Source of the DNA: Conexibacter sp.
GTDB taxonomy: Bacteria > Actinomycetota > Thermoleophilia > Solirubrobacterales > 70-9
NCBI GenBank assembly: GCA_018263295.1
Contig: JADFCZ010000061.1
Coordinates: 1-32,552 of the forward strand
Reading direction: 5' to 3'
DNA: 32,552 nt
The notes under the pieces were generated by a model that was given only the letters and a program-made list of their open reading frames with translations, did not search any database and had not been told where the DNA came from. Every line of letters begins with the position of its first letter. Position 1 is the first letter of the stretch. Positions 305-19,110 of this stretch are shown here, piece by piece. The position numbers and the translations under genes are program-made.

Positions 305-339
305 TCACCGGATCGTTGATCTGATCAGGTGTTCAAGAT

Positions 340-361
340 GGGGCGGCCTTCGGGTCGCCCC
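340..361. terminator. Bidirectional intrinsic-type terminator
   Basis: A 9-bp stem (340-348 with 353-361, one G-T pair) is closed by a TTCG tetraloop. It lies between the convergent ends of the gene finishing at 304 and the dehalogenase finishing at 380. A short A/T-rich run follows on the + side, but there is no long T tract, as is usual in GC-rich actinobacteria. Confidence 0.75.
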
Positions 362-379
362 ATTATCTCTGCAGGGGGC

Positions 380-1267
380 TCAGGTCCGTTGCTCGCCGAG
401 CCAGGCGGCGATTCGCCGGCCGATCTGCTCGCCGCCGTCCTCCTGGAGGAAGTGCCCGGCGTTCTCGATCGTCTCCGGCGGCGTCAGGTTGAGTCGTTCG
501 GCGACCGCGTGGCCGACCTTCAGGGGGATGATCGGGTCGGAGTCGGCCCAGAGGCAGAGCGAGGGCATGCCGCGGGCGGCGATGCCCTCGGCGGCGGCCT
601 GACCCTCGGCGGCGCCGGGATCGTCGGGGCTCGTCGGGAGCATCAACGGAAAGGCCCGCGCGCCGGCCTTCGAGGCGGCGTCGGGGAAGGGCGCATCGTA
701 GGCGGCGGCGACCTCGGCGGCGGGCGGCGTCGCGCAGGCCCCGGTCACAAGCATCGAGATCGGCAGGTCCTCGGTCCGGCGGACGAAGTCCCGGAAGGTG
801 AGCCAGGCGTCGGTCATCCGCTGGCGGCCGTTGAAGACGCCGGTGTCCATGACCACGAGCTGCGAGCACATCTCCGGGTGCTCGGAGGCGATCCTCATCC
901 CGACCGGCCCGCCCCAGTCGTGGACGACGAAGGTCGCGTCGCGGACGCCGGCCTGCTCGAGCAGCCACGCGGCCGCCTCGACGTGGCGGTCGTAGGAGTA
1001 CCAGCCGATGTCGGTCGGCTTGTCGGAGCGGCCGAAACCGGGCAGGTCGGGCGCGATCACGCGGTAACCGGATTCGAGCAGCGGCGGGATCACCTTCCGC
1101 CACAAAAACGACCAGGTCGGTTCGCCGTGGAAGAGGACGACCGTCGGGCCCTCGCCCTCGTCGATCCGGGCGAGGCGGATGCCGTCCCAGTCGAGGTAAC
1201 GGGGCTCCCATGGGAAGTCGGGAAGGTCGGCGAACCGTTCGTCGGGGGTGCGGACGGAGTCGGTCAT
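380..1267 (-). CDS. Haloalkane dehalogenase family alpha/beta hydrolase
   Basis: A 295-residue alpha/beta hydrolase that matches subfamily I haloalkane dehalogenases (DhlA type). These enzymes hydrolyse carbon-halogen bonds through an aspartyl-alkyl ester. Visible landmarks are the HGEPTW oxyanion loop (47-52), the nucleophile D117 in HDWGG with W118 as a halide-stabilising residue, a likely cap tryptophan W155, the cap motif AAYDAPFPDAASKAG, the acid D244 in WADSDP, and H272 in AGHF. The triad is complete. It is cytoplasmic, with no signal peptide. It starts 12 bases after the R2-SCP2 gene, so the two are probably cotranscribed. Related families such as epoxide hydrolases share the fold, and the real substrate cannot be read from sequence. 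Confidence 0.88.
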   Translation of the reverse strand: MTDSVRTPDERFADLPDFPWEPRYLDWDGIRLARIDEGEGPTVVLFHGEPTWSFLWRKVIPPLLESGYRVIAPDLPGFGRSDKPTDIGWYSYDRHVEAAAWLLEQAGVRDATFVVHDWGGPVGMRIASEHPEMCSQLVVMDTGVFNGRQRMTDAWLTFRDFVRRTEDLPISMLVTGACATPPAAEVAAAYDAPFPDAASKAGARAFPLMLPTSPDDPGAAEGQAAAEGIAARGMPSLCLWADSDPIIPLKVGHAVAERLNLTPPETIENAGHFLQEDGGEQIGRRIAAWLGEQRT

Positions 1268-1279
1268 CGCCGCGGCAAA

Positions 1280-2551
1280 CTATCCGAACAGCTTCGCGAA
1301 CCGCAGCAGGTCGCGCGGGCCACCCCGGAGCTTCATCCGCCGCTGGACGAGCGCCTTCGGCGGCGCGAGCGCGCCCTTGCTGATCTCGATGAAGTCCTTC
1401 CAACTCGCCTCGAGCGTGACGTCGGCGGCCCGCGCCTCGCCCGCTGCGGCCCGGGTCGACCCGTTGTCGACCACGAGGTGCCAGGGGGCGGCGTCGCTGA
1501 AGCGCCATTGGACCGTGAACGGCCCGTGGCCGTTGACGACGCTCGGGTCGACGGCGCGACTGACGGAGTCGAAGTAGAGCTGCTGGATCTCCGGCGAGCC
1601 GTCGGGGTCCTGGCCGGGCTCGCCGATCACCCCGGCCTGGGACATCCGGATCACGTTGGCGGCCCGCTCGTGCGGCTCGAGCTCGAAGTCGATCGGCGCG
1701 ACGCCGGGGGGCATCTCCTGCATCGGGTAGCCGATCGCCTTCCACTTCATCTCGACCGCCTTGAAGCCCCAGGCCGCGATCTCCTCGAGCTCGAAGCCGT
1801 AGCAGCGCGTGTACTCCCGGTCCCAGTTCGGCGGGATGAACACCGAGGAGAGCCAGGGCATGACCTCGGTCATCAGCTCGTCGACGGCGGCCTTGCACTC
1901 GTCGGACTCCGCGAGCAGCTCGCTGAGCACCTTGACGCCGAAGCCGATGTGGCGCTGCTCGTCGCGGGAGACGTGCTCCATCCCAGCGCTGAACCCCGGC
2001 ATCGTCCCCTCGCGGACGAAGAAGTCCTCGATGAAGTGCTGCCCGGGCTGGGCCATGCTCGCCTCGACGATCAGGTGGTAGAGCGTGATCGCCTGCGCGA
2101 ACTTCGGCAGCGACCGGTCGCGCCGGAGCTCGTCGGCCATCCGGTCGAGGCGGTTGAAGACCTGCTTGTAGCCCCAGCCGAGATGCTGCTCGGTGAACGC
2201 GAGCGTCGATGCGAGGTCGTCGCCGGCGCCGATCACCTCGCTGAAGAAGCGGTGGAAGAAGACGGCGTGGCGTGCCTCGTCGACCTGCTGGGTCGTCAGG
2301 AAGTACTTCTGCTCCTCCGTCGGCGCCGCGTCGATGTAGGGGGAGAGGTCATCCGCGACACGATCTTCGCCGAAGAAGAACATCGAGTAGATCCACAGCG
2401 CCGACTTGCGCTGGATCTCCGTCAGGCCCCTCCAGCCGTCACGGTCGGCGGAGAAGTCGATCTCCATGGCCGACCAGTTGTTCATCTCCCACCGCCTGTA
2501 CAGGTCGGTGTAGGTGATCCTGCTGGTCAGGTTCTGCTCTGCGACTGACAT
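1280..2551 (-). CDS. R2-like (ribonucleotide-reductase small-subunit-like) oxidase fused to SCP2 sterol-carrier domain
   Basis: A 423-residue ferritin-like di-metal carboxylate protein. The six ligands are in order: E62, E92 with H95 (DEARH), E163, and E198 with H201 (RDEQRH). V65 (ligand +3) and Y158 (third Glu -5) sit where R2lox enzymes carry the Val-Tyr pair that becomes an ether crosslink. This argues for an R2-like ligand-binding oxidase (Mn/Fe) rather than a true RNR subunit, and no large subunit is nearby. Residues about 325-423 look like an SCP2 sterol-carrier domain (FTVQWRF, a long hydrophobic strand, ASWKDFIEISKG, basic end). The start is the ATG at 2551 because GGAGGAGGGG lies just upstream; longer in-frame extensions run through the promoter region. 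It is the first gene of a unit with the dehalogenase and could oxidise a lipid-like substrate; that role is inference. Confidence 0.85.
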   Translation of the reverse strand: MSVAEQNLTSRITYTDLYRRWEMNNWSAMEIDFSADRDGWRGLTEIQRKSALWIYSMFFFGEDRVADDLSPYIDAAPTEEQKYFLTTQQVDEARHAVFFHRFFSEVIGAGDDLASTLAFTEQHLGWGYKQVFNRLDRMADELRRDRSLPKFAQAITLYHLIVEASMAQPGQHFIEDFFVREGTMPGFSAGMEHVSRDEQRHIGFGVKVLSELLAESDECKAAVDELMTEVMPWLSSVFIPPNWDREYTRCYGFELEEIAAWGFKAVEMKWKAIGYPMQEMPPGVAPIDFELEPHERAANVIRMSQAGVIGEPGQDPDGSPEIQQLYFDSVSRAVDPSVVNGHGPFTVQWRFSDAAPWHLVVDNGSTRAAAGEARAADVTLEASWKDFIEISKGALAPPKALVQRRMKLRGGPRDLLRFAKLFG

Positions 2552-2643: not shown

Positions 2644-2659
2644 CGTGACGGATGTCACA
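2644..2659. promoter_or_regulatory. CRP/FNR-family-like binding site
   Basis: CGTGA-N6-TCACA matches nine of ten defined positions of the CRP consensus TGTGA-N6-TCACA. It sits between the divergent R2-SCP2 operon and the small membrane protein gene, centred roughly 48 bases before the inferred start of the R2-SCP2 transcript, a position compatible with activation. The site is seen; the regulator is inferred. Confidence 0.45.
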
Positions 2660-2707
2660 GAGGGCCATCGCGGCCCGCCATTTCAAGCGGGCATCCGGGC
2701 GATCGAC

Positions 2708-2713
2708 TAGGTT
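2708..2713 (+). promoter_or_regulatory. -10-like box TAGGTT before the small membrane protein gene
   Basis: The box ends 7 bases before the ATG at 2721 and no Shine-Dalgarno is present, so transcription would begin at or next to the start codon (leaderless). Confidence 0.45.
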
Positions 2714-2720
2714 GGCCGCC

Positions 2721-3164
2721 ATGGAGTCGTCGCAGACGCCACCACCGGGGGGATCGGCAACGCCGGCTCCCGCGGGCGGCCCCACGGCGCCGCCGCCGCG
2801 AGCACCCGAGCAGGACGTCGCCGGGGTTGGAGCGCGGATCGGCGCCGGCGTTCTCGCGTTGGTCATCGCGATCATCTGCGCCGTCGCCGTCGCGGTGATG
2901 GTCGACGTCGGCGACACGCCGCTGTGTGAGGACGTCACCGCGTCGCAGGCGCTGGTCGGCGGATACGAGTGCTACGACTTCTCCGGCTCGATCAAGCCGA
3001 TCGTCGTCGGCGCCGGCTGGATCGGGGCCGTGCTGGCAGGTATCGCCGTGATCCTCGGGCTCGCCTTCGCGATTCGCGGCCGCGGCGGGCGGGCCTTCCT
3101 GCTGACGACCGGGGCCGCCGCGATCTTCCTCGCGATCAGCGTCCTCGCCGCTCAGGCCTCCTGA
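2721..3164 (+). CDS. Small three-helix membrane protein of unknown function
   Basis: A 147-residue protein. Residues 1-35 are a Pro/Gly/Ala-rich, probably cytoplasmic, tail. Three hydrophobic helices follow at about 38-62, 92-118 and 124-144. The loop between helices 1 and 2 holds two Cys residues (C69, C84) that could form an extracytoplasmic disulfide. The ATG at 2721 is chosen because it follows a -10-like box by 7 bases; an upstream in-frame ATG at 2652 would overlap the putative CRP site. It is divergent from the R2-SCP2 operon and convergent with the glycyl-tRNA synthetase gene. I recognise no family. Confidence 0.65.
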   Translation: MESSQTPPPGGSATPAPAGGPTAPPPRAPEQDVAGVGARIGAGVLALVIAIICAVAVAVMVDVGDTPLCEDVTASQALVGGYECYDFSGSIKPIVVGAGWIGAVLAGIAVILGLAFAIRGRGGRAFLLTTGAAAIFLAISVLAAQAS

Positions 3165-9826: not shown

Positions 9827-12492
9827 GTCACTTCCCGGCAGCGCCGGTGGAGCTCGGCCGGGGCGTGATCGTCGCCCCGGGCGCCGCGCCCCCGGATCCG
9901 TGGATCGATGCCGAGCGGATCGCGCTCGGGGCTTCCGAGCTGGCGAGCCCGCACGCCGTCGTCGCCCGTCTCCACGCCATCTGGGCGGAGCGGGTCCCGG
10001 TCGTCGTCGAGCTCGCCGTCGACCCGGCCGGCTTCCGCGAGCCCGAGTCGGTCGCGGCGCCGCCCTTCGAACTCGCCCCCGACCTCGATCTGCCGCTCGA
10101 CCGGCTTCATCACCTCGTCTGGGCCAACAACTACGACGCGCGCTCCGGCGACCCGATCTGGTGGTGGGGGGAGAAGGCGGCGCGGCTCGGGGCCGTCGTC
10201 GGCGGGGTGGCCGACGTCGCCCTCCACGACGGCCGCGACGCCTGGATCGACGGCGGCCCGCGCTGGAGCGTGCCCGAGGCCGACGTGCTGGTGATCGAGG
10301 CCTCGGCGGTCGACGCCGGCCTGCTCGAGCCGGTCCCCCGCGATCGCCCGCAGTCGGGGGTCGAGCTCGCGCCCGACCAGCAGGCCGCGGTCACCCACCA
10401 CGGCGGACCGGTCAGGGTCATCGCACCCGCCGGCTCGGGCAAGACCCGGGTGCTGACCGAGCGGATGCGGTACCTGCTCGCCGACCGCGGCTACCGGCGT
10501 GAGGCGGTGATCGCGGTCGCCTACAACAAGCTCGCCCAGGACGAGCTCGAGACCCGGCTGCGGGCGCTCGACCCGCGGACTCGGACGCTGAACTCGCTCG
10601 GCTACTCGCTGCTCAACCGCCACCGCGGCGCCCGGGCGCGGGTGCTCAGCGAGCCCGAGGCGCGCGACCTGATCGCCCGGGTCTTCCCGGTTCCGAAGCA
10701 GCGGCGCGCCAACACCGACCCGGTCGGGCCCTATCTCGACGCGCTGACGGTGGCCCGGCTCGGGCTGCTCCCGCCGGCGGAGGTCGAGGCGATGCGCGAC
10801 GACGTCGCCGGGTTCGCCGACGGCTTCGATGCCTACCGCGGACAGCTCGCCGCCGCCGGGGCCGTCGACTTCGACGAGCAGATCTACGGCGCGCTCGAGG
10901 CGCTGCTCCGCGATGGCGAGTTCCGGCGCCGCGTCCAGCGCGAGCACCGCCACCTGCTCGTCGACGAGTTCCAGGACCTGACACCGGCGCACGTGCTCAT
11001 GATCAGGTTGCTCGCGATGCCCGGCTTCGACGTCTTCGGCGTAGGCGACGACGACCAGACGATCTACGACCACGCCGGGGCCGACCCGCGCTTCCTCGTC
11101 GAGTACGGGCGGTTCTTCCCGGGCGCCGAGGAGACCGCGCTGGAGGTCAACTACCGCTGTGCCGGGGCCATCGTGGATGGCGCGGTCAACCTGCTCGGCT
11201 ACAACCGGCTCCGCGTCCCGAAGGAGATCCACGCCGCCGCGGGAGCCGATCCCGACCCGGCCGCGCTCGAGTTGCGGATCCGGCCCGCGGCGGAGGCGGC
11301 CGCCACCCTCGTCGAACTGGTTCGCGAGTGGCTCGCCGACCCCGAGGTCGGGCCCGCGGACGTCGCCGTGCTGGCCCGGGTCAACTCGCTGCTGCTGGCG
11401 CCGCAGGTGGCGCTGTTCTCGGCCGGCGTGCCGGTCGCGTCGGCCGTGCGCGGGGACATGCTGGAGCGGACCGGCGCCGCCGCCGCGCTCGCCTGGCTGC
11501 GCGTCGCCGTCGATCCCGACGGGCTCGTGGGCGCCGACCTCGAGGCGATCCGCCGCCGCCCGAGCCGTGGCTTCCCGATGTGGATCAGCAAGTGGCTCGC
11601 CAACTGCCGCTCGCTGGACGACCTCCGCCGGGTTGGACAGCGGATCGACGACGCCAGGGTCGCCGGCAAGGTCGACGACATGGTGGCCGACATCGAGATG
11701 CTCGCCGAGCTCGCCGCCGCCGGCGCCCGGACCCGCGAGCTGCTGGTGGCTGTCCGCGACCGGATCGGGCTCGGCGGCGCGATGGAGATGCTCGATGGCT
11801 CGAAGGGCAGCGAGGCGACGGCCAGTCACCTCGACGACCTCGAGGGCCTGATCCAGGTCGCGGACCTCCACGACGACCCGGGCGGATTCGAGCCGTGGCT
11901 GCGGGCGGCGCTCGAGGCGTCGGCCGGTGGCGAGGGCGTGCGGCTTTCGACCGTCCACCGGGTCAAGGGCCGCGAGTGGGACCGGGTCGCCGTCTACGGG
12001 GCCGACCAGGGCCTGATGCCGCACCGGCTGAGCGAGAACTGGGAGGCCGAACGGCGGGTGCTCCACGTCGCGATCACCAGGGCGCGGCACCGCTGCGTCG
12101 TCCTCGCCGACACCGAGCGCGCTTCGCCGTTCCTCGCCGAGATCACCGGCGAGGCGGCGGAGGCCGCGACCAAGCCCACGGTCAGCACCGACGTCCTGGC
12201 CGCCGCGACGTCGCGCTCGCGCCGCTCGCTCGGCCGTGACGAGGTTTCGCCGCTCGACGACGCAGGCCCGGAGAGCAGGGCCGCGGCCGAGGCGCTCAGG
12301 GAGTGGCGGAAGCTCCGCTCCGACGCCGACGGCGTGCCCGCCTTCGTCGTCCTCTCGAACAAACAGCTCGAGGGCATCGCGGCGGCGATGCCGGAGAACG
12401 AGCGCGAGCTGCTCGCGTGCAAAGGGATCGGGCCGACGAAGCTCGAGCGCTACGGCGATGACATCCTCGCCGTCCTCGCGACGGTGCGCTGA
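9823..12492 (+). CDS. UvrD/Rep-type superfamily 1A helicase with N-terminal extra domain and C-terminal HRDC-like domain
   Basis: An 889-residue DNA helicase. Motif I is APAGSGKT (201-208), motif II DEFQD (381-385), motif III GDDDQTIYDHAGA, motif IV VNYRC, motif V STVHRVKGREWD, and motif VI VLHVAITRAR. The last roughly 70 residues (from AEALREWRKLR) resemble an HRDC domain, as in mycobacterial UvrD2. About 190 residues precede motif Q. They contain WANNYDARSGDPIWWWG and alternating strands and are not part of the helicase core; their role is unknown to me. The GTG start overlaps the rsmI stop by four bases (GTGA), and the stop overlaps the next ATG. It probably acts in DNA repair or in removing bound proteins. 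Confidence 0.9.
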   Translation: MSHFPAAPVELGRGVIVAPGAAPPDPWIDAERIALGASELASPHAVVARLHAIWAERVPVVVELAVDPAGFREPESVAAPPFELAPDLDLPLDRLHHLVWANNYDARSGDPIWWWGEKAARLGAVVGGVADVALHDGRDAWIDGGPRWSVPEADVLVIEASAVDAGLLEPVPRDRPQSGVELAPDQQAAVTHHGGPVRVIAPAGSGKTRVLTERMRYLLADRGYRREAVIAVAYNKLAQDELETRLRALDPRTRTLNSLGYSLLNRHRGARARVLSEPEARDLIARVFPVPKQRRANTDPVGPYLDALTVARLGLLPPAEVEAMRDDVAGFADGFDAYRGQLAAAGAVDFDEQIYGALEALLRDGEFRRRVQREHRHLLVDEFQDLTPAHVLMIRLLAMPGFDVFGVGDDDQTIYDHAGADPRFLVEYGRFFPGAEETALEVNYRCAGAIVDGAVNLLGYNRLRVPKEIHAAAGADPDPAALELRIRPAAEAAATLVELVREWLADPEVGPADVAVLARVNSLLLAPQVALFSAGVPVASAVRGDMLERTGAAAALAWLRVAVDPDGLVGADLEAIRRRPSRGFPMWISKWLANCRSLDDLRRVGQRIDDARVAGKVDDMVADIEMLAELAAAGARTRELLVAVRDRIGLGGAMEMLDGSKGSEATASHLDDLEGLIQVADLHDDPGGFEPWLRAALEASAGGEGVRLSTVHRVKGREWDRVAVYGADQGLMPHRLSENWEAERRVLHVAITRARHRCVVLADTERASPFLAEITGEAAEAATKPTVSTDVLAAATSRSRRSLGRDEVSPLDDAGPESRAAAEALREWRKLRSDADGVPAFVVLSNKQLEGIAAAMPENERELLACKGIGPTKLERYGDDILAVLATVR

Positions 12493-12872
12493 TGGAGCTC
12501 GTCGCCAGGGTCGCGCTGGCCGCGGTGCTCGCCTACTCGGCAGCGTCGAAGCTCGCCGACCCCCGGGGCTCGACGGCGGCGATGTCCACCTTCGGGTTCT
12601 CGACGCCGGCCTCGCGGCGGGTCGCGTGGACCGTGGCGGTCCTCGCCGAGGCGGCGCTCGCAGTCGGCGTGGCCGCCGGCAGCGACCGCGCCGCCTACCT
12701 CGCGGCGGCGCTGATGCTCGTTTTCGCGCTGGCGCTCGGCTCGGCGCTGATGCGCGGCCGGGCCGGGGCGCCGTGCGCCTGCTTCGGCGGCGGTTCGACG
12801 GTCGCGCCCGGCGCCGTCGTCCGCGACCTGCTGCTCGCGGCGGCGTTCGCGGCATTGCCGGCGCTCCCCTGA
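12492..12872 (+). CDS. MauE/DoxX-like redox-associated membrane protein
   Basis: A 126-residue polytopic membrane protein with about four hydrophobic segments. It has the MauE-type motif GAPCACFGG with C95 and C97 between the last two helices, and YSAASKLADP in the first loop. MauE relatives are thought to support disulfide or electron transfer across the membrane; the substrate is unknown. Its ATG overlaps the helicase stop (TGATG), so it is the last gene of the glucokinase-rsmI-helicase chain. No thioredoxin-like partner lies nearby. Confidence 0.75.
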   Translation: MELVARVALAAVLAYSAASKLADPRGSTAAMSTFGFSTPASRRVAWTVAVLAEAALAVGVAAGSDRAAYLAAALMLVFALALGSALMRGRAGAPCACFGGGSTVAPGAVVRDLLLAAAFAALPALP

Positions 12873-16778: not shown

Positions 16779-17629
16779 GCAAGGCGTTCGAGATCTTCGC
16801 GCCGGCGAAGCTGAACCTCTGCCTCTTCGTCGGGCCGGTCCGCGGCGACGGGCTTCACGAGCTCAGCTCGCTGTTCGTTCCGCTCTCGCTCGCCGATCGC
16901 GTCGTCGTCTCGGCCGCCGATCGCGACGAGGTCGTGGTTGCGGGCATCGAGGGCCCAGACCTGACCGCTCGCGCCCTGCGGGAATTGCGCGAGGCCGGCT
17001 GGGAGCACGATCCGATCAGGATCGAGGTCGAGAAGGTGATCCCCGTCGCCGCCGGCCTCGGCGGCGGCAGCGCCGACGCGGCGGCCGTGCTCCGCCTCGC
17101 CCGCGGCGACATTCCCGACGAGCGGCTGGCCGCAATCGCCCGCGGCCTCGGGGCCGATGTCAGCTCGCAGCTCGAGCCGTCGTTCTGCCTCGTCGGCGGC
17201 GCCGGCGAGCTGGTCGAGCCGCTGCCCGCGCCGCATCCCTTCGCCGCGGTCCTGATCCCGGATCCCGAGGGGTTGTCGACGCCCGCCGTCTACGCCGAGG
17301 CCGACCGGCTCGGCACGACCCGGAGCGGCGACGGGATCGCCGAGGCGCGCCGGGCGCTGATCGCCGCCGCGAGCCCGGGCGCGCACCCGCTCGAGTACAC
17401 CGAGCTGCTGGTCAACGATCTCGCGCCGGCGGCGCTCTCGCTGCGGCCGTCGATCAGCCTGGCGCTCGGCCTCCTCGCGGAGGTCGGCGCGCCGGTCGCG
17501 ATCGTCACCGGCTCCGGGCCGACCGCGGTCGGGCTGTTCGAGGGGAGGGACGAGGCGGTCGCCGCCGCGACCGAGCTGCGCGCCGAAGGGCACGAGTCGA
17601 TCGTCGCCAGCTCGGTCCAGGGGATCTGA
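16775..17629 (+). CDS. ispE: 4-diphosphocytidyl-2-C-methyl-D-erythritol kinase
   Basis: A 284-residue GHMP kinase that phosphorylates CDP-ME in the non-mevalonate isoprenoid pathway, supplying polyprenyl carriers and quinones. It has APAKLNLCL at the N-terminus, the GHMP ATP loop PVAAGLGGGSADAAA (about 89-103), GADV with the catalytic Asp, and a C-terminal VTGSGPTAVGLF glycine loop. It is coupled to rsmA by an ATGA overlap and to the DedA-PAP2 gene by a TGATG overlap. Confidence 0.95.
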   Translation: MSKAFEIFAPAKLNLCLFVGPVRGDGLHELSSLFVPLSLADRVVVSAADRDEVVVAGIEGPDLTARALRELREAGWEHDPIRIEVEKVIPVAAGLGGGSADAAAVLRLARGDIPDERLAAIARGLGADVSSQLEPSFCLVGGAGELVEPLPAPHPFAAVLIPDPEGLSTPAVYAEADRLGTTRSGDGIAEARRALIAAASPGAHPLEYTELLVNDLAPAALSLRPSISLALGLLAEVGAPVAIVTGSGPTAVGLFEGRDEAVAAATELRAEGHESIVASSVQGI

Positions 17630-19110
17630 TGGAGCTGCCGCGCAAGCGCAAGGACTGGCTCAAGATCGTCGCGGTCGTGGTCGCGATCGTCGTCGCCTAC
17701 CAGCTGATCAAGCGGGCGCTCCCCGACGTCGACGCCCAGGACCTGCTCGAGGACGTCTCCGGATCGCTGGGCTCGTGGACGTATCTGATCGTCGGCATCC
17801 TCGCCTTCCTCGAGACCGGCGCGTTCGTCGGGCTCGTCGCGCCGGGCGAGACGGTCGTCGTGCTCGCCGGCGCCGTCGCCGGCCAGGGCGCGACCTCGGT
17901 CGTGCTGACGATCGGCATCGTCTGGCTCTGCGCCTTCCTCGGCGACACCTGCAGCTTCTTCCTCGGCGAGCGGCTCGGGCGCGACTGGGTGATGCGGCAC
18001 GGCCCGCGGCTGCGGATCACGCCGGAGCGCTTCAAGCAGGTCGAGGACTACTTCGCGAGCCACGGCGGCAAGACGATCCTGATCGGGCGGTTCATCGGGC
18101 TCGTCCGGGCCCTGGCGCCGTTCGTCGCCGGCAGCTCGCGGATGCCGTACCGGCAGCTCGCGCCCTACAGCGTCCTCGGCACGGGCATGTGGGCGACGCT
18201 GTTCACGCTGCTCGGCTACTTCGCCTCGAAGAACATCGACGCGGTCCTCGCCAACTCCGAGCACGCGCTGCTCGCCTTCGCGGCGATCGTCGCGGCGATC
18301 GTCGGCGGGATCGTCGCCTACCGCTGGCTCAAGGTCGAGGCGAACCGCAAGCGGCTGGCGAGCGGGATGGAGGAGCGGCCGGTCCTGCGCAACCTGCTGG
18401 CGCTGGGGCGCCGTCTGCGGCCGCAGGCGCGTTTCCTCCTCGCCCGGCTGACACCCGGGGGGCTCGGCCTCGAGTTCACGACCGCGCTGGCAGCGCTCGC
18501 GGTGGGCAGCTACGTCGCGATCGGTTACGCGCTCGTCGTCGACGGCTCGCCGGGGCCGACGACGGGCGACACGACCGCGGCCGACTTCGTCTCCAATCTG
18601 CGGGCCGACTGGCTGACGTCCATCGCCAAGGTGCTGACGGCTCTCGGCTCGTGGGAGGCGGTCACCTTCGCCACCGCCGTGACGGCGGTCTGGCTCGCGG
18701 CTCGGCGCGCCTGGGCGGAGCTCGTCGTCCTCGTGCTGGGGACGATCGCGATCCTCTGGGGGACCGACCTGATCAAGGAGGCGGTCGCCCGGCCGCGGCC
18801 CCCGGACGGGCTCGTCGACACCGAGGGCTTCTCGTACCCGAGCGGGCATGCGTCCCACGCGGTCATCTACACGTGGATCGCGATCACGATCGCGATCAAG
18901 GTCCGCCCGGGGATGAGCCGCGGCACGGCGCTCGTCGTCGCCGGGGTCCTGCTCACCGCTGCGATCGGGCTCAGCCGCGTCTACCTGGGCGTCCACTGGA
19001 TGAGTGACGTCAGCGGCGGCTGGGCGCTCGGCGCTGCGATCTTCGCGCTGCTCTCGGCGGTCGCCGTGATCGTCGTCCACTTGCGGCAGAATGGGCGCAA
19101 TGTCCGCTGA
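17629..19110 (+). CDS. DedA - PAP2 phosphatase membrane fusion protein
   Basis: A 493-residue polytopic membrane protein with two recognised modules. The N-terminal part is DedA-like (about 40-235), with LETGAFVGLVAPGE, FLGDTCSFFLGERLGRDW and GRFIGLVRALAPFVAG (154-169). The C-terminal part is PAP2 phosphatase (about 285-480), with all three active-site motifs: K383-x6-R390-P391, PSGH (404-407), and S449-R450 ... H456 ... D460. A basic linker (about 236-275) joins them. DedA proteins include undecaprenyl-phosphate translocases, and PAP2 proteins include undecaprenyl-pyrophosphate phosphatases. The fusion next to ispE therefore suggests carrier-lipid recycling (inference). Phosphatidate phosphatase is the alternative. 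The ATG overlaps the ispE stop by one base. Confidence 0.9.
   Translation: MELPRKRKDWLKIVAVVVAIVVAYQLIKRALPDVDAQDLLEDVSGSLGSWTYLIVGILAFLETGAFVGLVAPGETVVVLAGAVAGQGATSVVLTIGIVWLCAFLGDTCSFFLGERLGRDWVMRHGPRLRITPERFKQVEDYFASHGGKTILIGRFIGLVRALAPFVAGSSRMPYRQLAPYSVLGTGMWATLFTLLGYFASKNIDAVLANSEHALLAFAAIVAAIVGGIVAYRWLKVEANRKRLASGMEERPVLRNLLALGRRLRPQARFLLARLTPGGLGLEFTTALAALAVGSYVAIGYALVVDGSPGPTTGDTTAADFVSNLRADWLTSIAKVLTALGSWEAVTFATAVTAVWLAARRAWAELVVLVLGTIAILWGTDLIKEAVARPRPPDGLVDTEGFSYPSGHASHAVIYTWIAITIAIKVRPGMSRGTALVVAGVLLTAAIGLSRVYLGVHWMSDVSGGWALGAAIFALLSAVAVIVVHLRQNGRNVR

What the first reader, a model, noticed from the sequence alone, without database searches (positions are those of the whole stretch)
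1280..2551. R2-like oxidase fused to an SCP2 lipid-carrier domain, operon-linked to a dehalogenase
All six di-metal ligands (E62, E92, H95, E163, E198, H201) are present, plus V65 and Y158, the pair crosslinked in R2lox enzymes. R2lox proteins are known to hold a long-chain fatty acid at the metal site, and SCP2 domains bind lipids. A covalent fusion suggests an enzyme that loads its own lipid substrate. A haloalkane-dehalogenase-type hydrolase follows after 12 bases. Together they could form a lipid or halo-lipid oxidation and hydrolysis cassette that I do not know to be described.
Basis: partly seen in the sequence, partly recalled or inferred. Interest (0 to 1): 0.65.

Follow-up and report, generated by a model that had tools for sequence, protein, structure and literature searches.

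The report
Lipid-carrier-fused R2lox-like oxidase family
The gene encodes an oxygen-activating two-metal enzyme joined in one chain to a lipid-carrying domain; this fusion is old and widespread in one branch of actinobacteria and probably oxidises long-chain acyl compounds, but the dehalogenase next to it is an accidental neighbour found only in this genus.

Summary
On the minus strand (2551-1280) lies a 423-aa protein with an R2lox-like dimetal oxidase domain and a true C-terminal SCP2 domain. The fusion is full-length in about 91 of 151 sampled genomes of the order and in 13 genomes of two families outside this class, and forms one clade. All six metal ligands plus V65 and Y158 are kept in 65 of 67 distinct fusions. 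It is a divergent relative of R2lox, not a canonical member: it scores below NCBI's R2lox cut-offs, sits on a long branch, and the conserved cavity tyrosine (Y175 in Geobacillus R2lox) is Gln171. The genome's only detected ribonucleotide reductase is class II, so a reductase role is very unlikely. The haloalkane dehalogenase is a sound HLD-I homologue but adjacent only in three genomes of this genus; in 21 other family genomes with both genes it lies elsewhere. In the distant lineage the fusion sits beside acyl-CoA dehydrogenases, often 10-67 bases upstream of one; in the window's family a fatty-acid-CoA ligase is common nearby. Best reading: an oxidase of long-chain acyl substrates delivered by its own SCP2 domain. 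The biochemistry is untested.

The parts
1280..2551 (-). Gene for the R2lox-like oxidase / SCP2 fusion protein (P0001, 423 aa plus stop)
   Evidence: full-length relatives
1724..2509 (-). R2lox-like dimetal-carboxylate oxidase domain (about residues 15-276)
   Evidence: Pfam Ribonuc_red_sm 2.4e-19; NCBIfam NF006200 R2-like ligand-binding oxidase 5.7e-39 but under its cut-off; best PDB matches are R2lox structures
1949..2368 (-). Span holding the metal ligands E62 (2366-2368), E92 (2276-2278), H95 (2267-2269), E163 (2063-2065), E198 (1958-1960), H201 (1949-1951), and the crosslink pair V65 (2357-2359) and Y158 (2078-2080)
   Evidence: Alignment with 4HR0/6QRZ and 87 family sequences; all eight kept in 65/67 fusions
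2039..2041 (-). Codon of Gln171, in the place of the conserved cavity tyrosine (Y175) of canonical R2lox
   Evidence: Q in 65/67 fusions and 17/20 standalone relatives; Y in 4HR0 and 6QRZ; role of Y175 from PMC4118035
1595..1723 (-). Variable linker and helix between the two domains (residues 277-319)
   Evidence: median identity to the query 32% (residues 286-319) against 64% (R2) and 42% (SCP2)
1283..1594 (-). SCP2 (sterol carrier / lipid-transfer) domain, residues 320-423
   Evidence: Pfam SCP2 3.7e-9; fold matches 1IKT, 8AF2 and alkylsulfatases; strongest SCP2 hit of the genome
380..1267 (-). Haloalkane dehalogenase (HLD-I type, P0002) following after 12 bases; a genus-only neighbour, not judged part of a conserved unit
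   Evidence: NF002043 300 bits against 265 cut-off; best PDB 4MJ3, 6F9O, 2XT0; linkage in 3 of 24 genomes with both genes

Best explanation
This is an ancient actinobacterial family in which an R2lox-like Mn/Fe or Fe/Fe oxidase is covalently joined to an SCP2 lipid carrier. The most likely working: the SCP2 domain binds a long-chain fatty acid, acyl-CoA or similar acyl lipid and presents its chain to the hydrophobic channel that in R2lox leads to the dimetal site. O2 activation there makes the Val65-Tyr158 ether crosslink once, during maturation, and then performs a two-electron oxidation (hydroxylation or desaturation) of the acyl chain, feeding or branching from beta-oxidation. Shown here: the two domains, ligands, crosslink pair, conservation, single clade and acyl-CoA gene neighbours. 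Inferred: metal content, the crosslink itself, substrate identity, substrate hand-over between the domains, and the reaction.
For: Both domains by profile and fold. Eight active-site positions kept in 65/67 fusions. Fusion retained across the order and in 13 genomes of two families outside the class, in one clade (99% SH-aLRT once long rows are left out). Both domains under purifying selection. [quoted passage not shown] Geobacillus R2lox is reported to oxidise alkanes and lies in a fatty-acid gene cluster (PMC10867098). In the distant lineage, eight of nine f10 genomes checked have an acyl-CoA dehydrogenase directly beside a fusion gene (background only 10-22 such genes per genome), five of them 10-67 bases downstream on the same strand; another fusion copy has an enoyl-CoA hydratase 13 bases downstream. 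Fatty-acid-CoA ligase next to or near the fusion in 12 of 20 loci of the window's lineage. The genome's own reductase is NrdJ.
Against: No biochemistry was found for any member. In the window itself the neighbours are glyS and a dehalogenase, not acyl-CoA genes. The conserved R2lox cavity tyrosine is Gln here, so the chemistry may differ. Neighbour conservation partly reflects shared descent: it is few independent events. No dedicated electron donor was recognised in the neighbourhoods examined. The R2 part of the model is poor (pLDDT mostly 45-80), so domain docking could not be judged. Two fusions have lost ligands and the crosslink Tyr (L096, L101), so a non-catalytic role must be possible in those.
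Confidence: 0.5

Rival explanations
1. The fusion oxidises a hydrophobic substrate that is not a fatty acyl chain (isoprenoid, hopanoid, sterol-like, polyketide or quinone); SCP2 selects that ligand.
For: SCP2 domains are promiscuous lipid binders (established knowledge); the R2lox fatty acid may be an artefact of heterologous expression (PMC4118035); gene neighbours vary between lineages.
Against: Acyl-CoA dehydrogenase, enoyl-CoA hydratase and fatty-acid-CoA ligase are the recurrent metabolic neighbours.
Confidence: 0.25
2. The oxidase fires once (the crosslink) and the protein then works mainly as a lipid-binding, sensing or storage protein, with the metal site as an oxygen or redox switch.
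For: The only oxidation firmly established for R2lox is its own stoichiometric crosslink (PMC6060897; PMC10401708); two fusions with degenerate ligands persist (L096, L101).
Against: Near-perfect retention of all ligands in 65/67; reported alkane oxidation by Geobacillus R2lox, though with modest effects in crude lysate.
Confidence: 0.17
3. One reading: the fusion oxidises, and the adjacent haloalkane dehalogenase hydrolyses, the same lipids or halo-lipids.
For: Twelve-base spacing in the window and in L003, and adjacency in L004; the dehalogenase has an HLD-I-type catalytic set (HGEPTW, D117-W118, W155, an Asp of the DSD at 242-244, H272).
Against: Adjacency only in this genus; unlinked in 21 of 24 family genomes with both genes; each gene also occurs without the other.
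Confidence: 0.04
4. It is the small subunit (R2) of a class I ribonucleotide reductase, as annotation pipelines often say.
For: Pfam Ribonuc_red_sm hit.
Against: The genome's only detected large subunit is B12-dependent NrdJ, 1392 bits, which needs no R2; the radical Tyr position (H95+4) is Phe99; the C-terminus is an SCP2 domain; R2lox structures score far above true R2.
Confidence: 0.02

Closest known systems
R2lox, R2-like ligand-binding oxidase (Geobacillus kaustophilus 4HR0, M. tuberculosis 3EE4/4AC8, Sulfolobus 6QRZ/7QBK, Saccharopolyspora 7QBP)
   Same: Six metal ligands, first ligand Glu, Val/Tyr crosslink pair, the Ala and Gly next to the site (A167, G61), best structural and sequence match
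   Different: About 25% identity; under every NCBIfam R2lox cut-off; long separate branch; Y175 replaced by Gln171; carries a C-terminal SCP2 domain absent in the solved R2lox structures
Standalone actinobacterial R2lox-like paralogues (e.g. L002/L085 in this genome, L071-L084)
   Same: Nearest relatives outside the fusion; same ligands, and Gln at the Y175 position in 17/20
   Different: No SCP2 domain; about 275-335 aa; different neighbours (metallo-beta-lactamase-fold hydrolase, rhomboid protein)
SCP2 domains of human MFE-2 (1IKT) and of alkylsulfatases SdsA1/Pisa1 (2CFU, 2YHE)
   Same: Same fold; in both cases an SCP2-type domain at the C-terminus of an enzyme acting on lipid-like chains
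   Different: Attached there to dehydrogenase/hydratase or sulfatase domains, not to a dimetal oxidase
Haloalkane dehalogenases of subfamily I (4MJ3, DpcA 6F9O, DppA 2XT0, DhlA)
   Same: Neighbour P0002 has the family's motifs and passes NF002043
   Different: Not a stable partner of the fusion

Membership tests
R2lox (R2-like ligand-binding oxidase) | Four Glu and two His ligands with Glu as first ligand | tested here: met
   E62, E92, H95, E163, E198, H201; 65/67 fusions
R2lox (R2-like ligand-binding oxidase) | Crosslink-forming Val and Tyr next to the site | tested here: met
   V65 and Y158 align with V72/Y162 of 4HR0; the crosslink itself is not testable here
R2lox (R2-like ligand-binding oxidase) | Conserved tyrosine lining the ligand cavity (Y175) | tested here: not met
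   Gln171 in 65/67; Y175 conservation from PMC4118035
R2lox (R2-like ligand-binding oxidase) | Passes a curated R2lox model | tested here: not met
   Best NF006200 134 bits against cut-off 194
R2lox (R2-like ligand-binding oxidase) | Mn/Fe cofactor and bound long-chain fatty acid | not testable with these tools
   needs purified protein
SCP2 domain | Profile match above the gathering score | tested here: met
   37.3 bits against 21.3; 18 of 20 members match at E 0.01 or better
SCP2 domain | SCP2 fold | tested here: met
   1IKT TM-score 0.69 (by target length), rmsd 2.9
SCP2 domain | Binds lipid | not testable with these tools
   needs binding assay
Class I ribonucleotide reductase R2 | Class I large subunit in the genome | tested here: not met
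   Only NrdJ (class II) found; the assembly is about 90% complete
Class I ribonucleotide reductase R2 | R1-binding C-terminal tail | tested here: not met
   C-terminus is an SCP2 domain
Haloalkane dehalogenase I (P0002) | Nucleophile Asp with Trp, halide-binding Trp, acid, His base; subfamily model passed | tested here: met
   HDWGG 116-120, W155, DSD 242-244, H272 (motifs matched by eye); NF002043 300 > 265 bits

The most novel reading that the evidence does not exclude
A distinct clade of dimetal oxidases with a built-in lipid carrier, acting catalytically on acyl chains bound to or delivered by SCP2 in a beta-oxidation context, using Gln in place of the R2lox cavity tyrosine. This would supply a physiological substrate class for R2lox-type enzymes, and a self-loading oxidase.
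Probability: 0.3. Interest if true: 0.72.

Novelty: new variant of a known kind. Interest (0 to 1): 0.47.

Why it matters
A 2014 review stated that the physiological function of R2lox was unknown (PMC4118035), and the one later report of a substrate that I found concerns alkanes (PMC10867098). A widespread, strictly conserved fusion to a lipid carrier, beside acyl-CoA dehydrogenase genes in a distant lineage, points to the substrate class and gives a concrete protein in which to look for it: the SCP2 pocket may hold the true substrate when the protein is purified from a native relative.

Tried and rejected
Rejected: a conserved operon with the dehalogenase; a ribonucleotide-reductase subunit; chance or pseudogene fusion; a wrong-frame artefact (the overlapping plus-strand ORF 329-2548 looks like a high-GC shadow; the relatives found match the minus-strand frame). 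Led nowhere: viral contigs gave no relative; plasmids hold only unfused R2lox-like genes, the best at 24-32% identity; paper searches combining R2lox or ribonucleotide reductase with SCP2 found no description of the fusion (the library lacks most subscription papers). The AlphaFold2 model, limited to 20 similar sequences, leaves the R2 part uncertain, so interdomain geometry was not interpreted.

Full report
WHAT IS THERE. The gene lies on the minus strand, 2551 to 1280, and encodes 423 residues. Its start is preceded by GGAGGAGGGGAATGAG, a good ribosome-binding sequence, and most relatives of the same family begin with the same MSVA. Pfam finds a ribonucleotide-reductase small-chain domain at 15-230 (2.4e-19) and an SCP2 domain at 346-422 (3.7e-9), with a weaker overlapping alkylsulfatase C-terminal match, itself an SCP2-type fold. 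NCBIfam's best models are all 'R2-like ligand-binding oxidase', but the best score (134 bits) is under its cut-off of 194. The nearest solved sequences are R2lox proteins (6QRZ, 4HR0, 7QBP, 7QBK, 3EE4), well above any true R2.

ACTIVE SITE. Aligned with 4HR0 and 6QRZ, the protein has all six ligands (E62, E92, H95, E163, E198, H201) and the crosslink pair (V65, Y158). All eight are kept in 65 of 67 distinct fusion sequences and in 18 of 20 standalone relatives. One second-sphere position differs throughout: the tyrosine that lines the R2lox cavity (Y175 in Geobacillus; PMC4118035) is Gln171 in 65 of 67 fusions, with no gap between it and the ligand E163. By the rule that a failed defining feature bars membership, I call this an R2lox-like sister family that probably works like R2lox, not R2lox proper.

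SCP2 DOMAIN. Eighteen of 20 scanned members match SCP2 on their own. In the AlphaFold2 model the C-terminal third is confident, and Foldseek matches it to human MFE-2/SCP2 domains (rmsd 2.6-2.9) and to alkylsulfatases. It is the strongest SCP2 match in the genome. The domain varies more than the oxidase (median identity 42% against 64%) but is under purifying selection. The R2 part of that model is poor, probably because only 20 close sequences could be used, so I draw nothing from the relative placement of the domains.

DISTRIBUTION AND ANCESTRY. By my count, about 91 of 151 genomes of the order hold a full-length fusion in one frame. Nineteen named contigs, Solirubrobacterales, Thermoleophilia or unplaced Actinomycetota MAGs plus one unclassified bacterium, hold it at 57-88% identity. 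In a phylum-wide sample of 396 genomes it appears in 13 genomes of two families (f10, f15) outside the class, at about 34-45% identity, and no full-length match was listed for the other orders of the window's class that were sampled. In a tree of the oxidase part the fusions fall on one side of a branch (99% SH-aLRT when very long rows are left out; in the full tree 65 of 67 hold together at 98%, while the branch uniting all 67 has little support). A branch of about 2.2 changes per site separates the solved R2lox proteins from them (long branches there make the exact place unsure). One fusion event, kept since, is the simplest account.

NEIGHBOURS. The dehalogenase P0002 is a good HLD-I homologue. 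But it is beside the fusion only in the three genomes of this genus (window, L003/L022, L004/L023). Its orthologue exists in 37 of 46 family genomes; of the 24 that also hold a full-length fusion, 21 have it elsewhere. The linkage is therefore a late, local juxtaposition. Recurrent neighbours tell a more consistent story. [quoted passage not shown] TetR-type regulators are often adjacent. In the distant family f10, an acyl-CoA dehydrogenase lies directly beside a fusion gene in eight of nine genomes checked; in G151, G356, G196, G282 and G230 one starts 10-67 bases downstream on the same strand. Those genomes hold only 10-22 such genes each. A further f10 copy (L117) has an enoyl-CoA hydratase 13 bases downstream. 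Shared descent means these are few independent events, but they have been kept while the fusion diverged strongly.

WHAT IT IS NOT. The genome's only detected ribonucleotide reductase large chain is the B12-dependent NrdJ (1392 bits), which needs no R2 subunit, so the usual automatic label 'ribonucleotide reductase subunit beta' would be wrong here.

MECHANISM. Shown by others: R2lox proteins hold a long-chain fatty acid that bridges the metals in a channel from the surface, and make a Tyr-Val ether during O2 activation (PMC6060897). Geobacillus R2lox is reported to degrade C10-C22 alkanes in lysates, with only a partial loss in a ligand mutant (PMC10867098), which is weak support. Inferred here: the attached SCP2 domain captures or extracts an acyl lipid and hands it to the oxidase channel, and the product enters or branches off beta-oxidation. 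The Gln for Tyr change suggests that a tyrosyl radical at that position is not needed. I put the probability of a catalytic oxidase of long-chain acyl compounds at about one half.

NOVELTY. No paper found in the searchable library describes an R2lox-SCP2 fusion, but subscription papers are mostly missing, and the architecture must already sit unremarked in public databases. I rate it a new variant of a known kind.

Noticed in passing
L096 (G356:C289:16439-17668) and L101 (G303:C114:5428-6660): Two sister fusions have lost metal ligands and the crosslink tyrosine (V62, N95, C158; V62, E65, C158) yet keep full length and sit beside acyl-CoA dehydrogenase genes: natural candidates for metal-free, lipid-binding-only versions.
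   Followed up: partly
G182:C142:857-1718: A divergent pair of acyl-CoA dehydrogenase genes of the same score classes as those flanking the fusion, but with only about 200 bases between their N-terminal domains and no fusion gene: possibly an empty site.
   Followed up: no
L071-L084, e.g. L073:5879-7751: Standalone R2lox-like paralogues of the same order often have a conserved neighbourhood: a metallo-beta-lactamase-fold hydrolase, an unknown protein of about 127 aa and a zinc-ribbon rhomboid protein.
   Followed up: partly
G000:C62:10728-11570 (L002/L085): The genome has a second, unfused R2lox-like gene at 28% identity, with Ile in place of the crosslink Val.
   Followed up: partly
window 2652-3164 (+): Divergent small membrane-protein-like ORF between glyS and the fusion, with no Pfam match and relatives seen only in this genus.
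   Followed up: partly
window 17629-19110 (+): One ORF carrying both a VTT (DedA-type) domain and a PAP2 phosphatase domain.
   Followed up: no
window 12492-12872 (+): MauE/DoxX-type small membrane protein.
   Followed up: no
window 329-2548 (+): A 739-aa open frame runs antisense to the fusion and the dehalogenase; it looks like a high-GC shadow frame, not a gene.
   Followed up: partly
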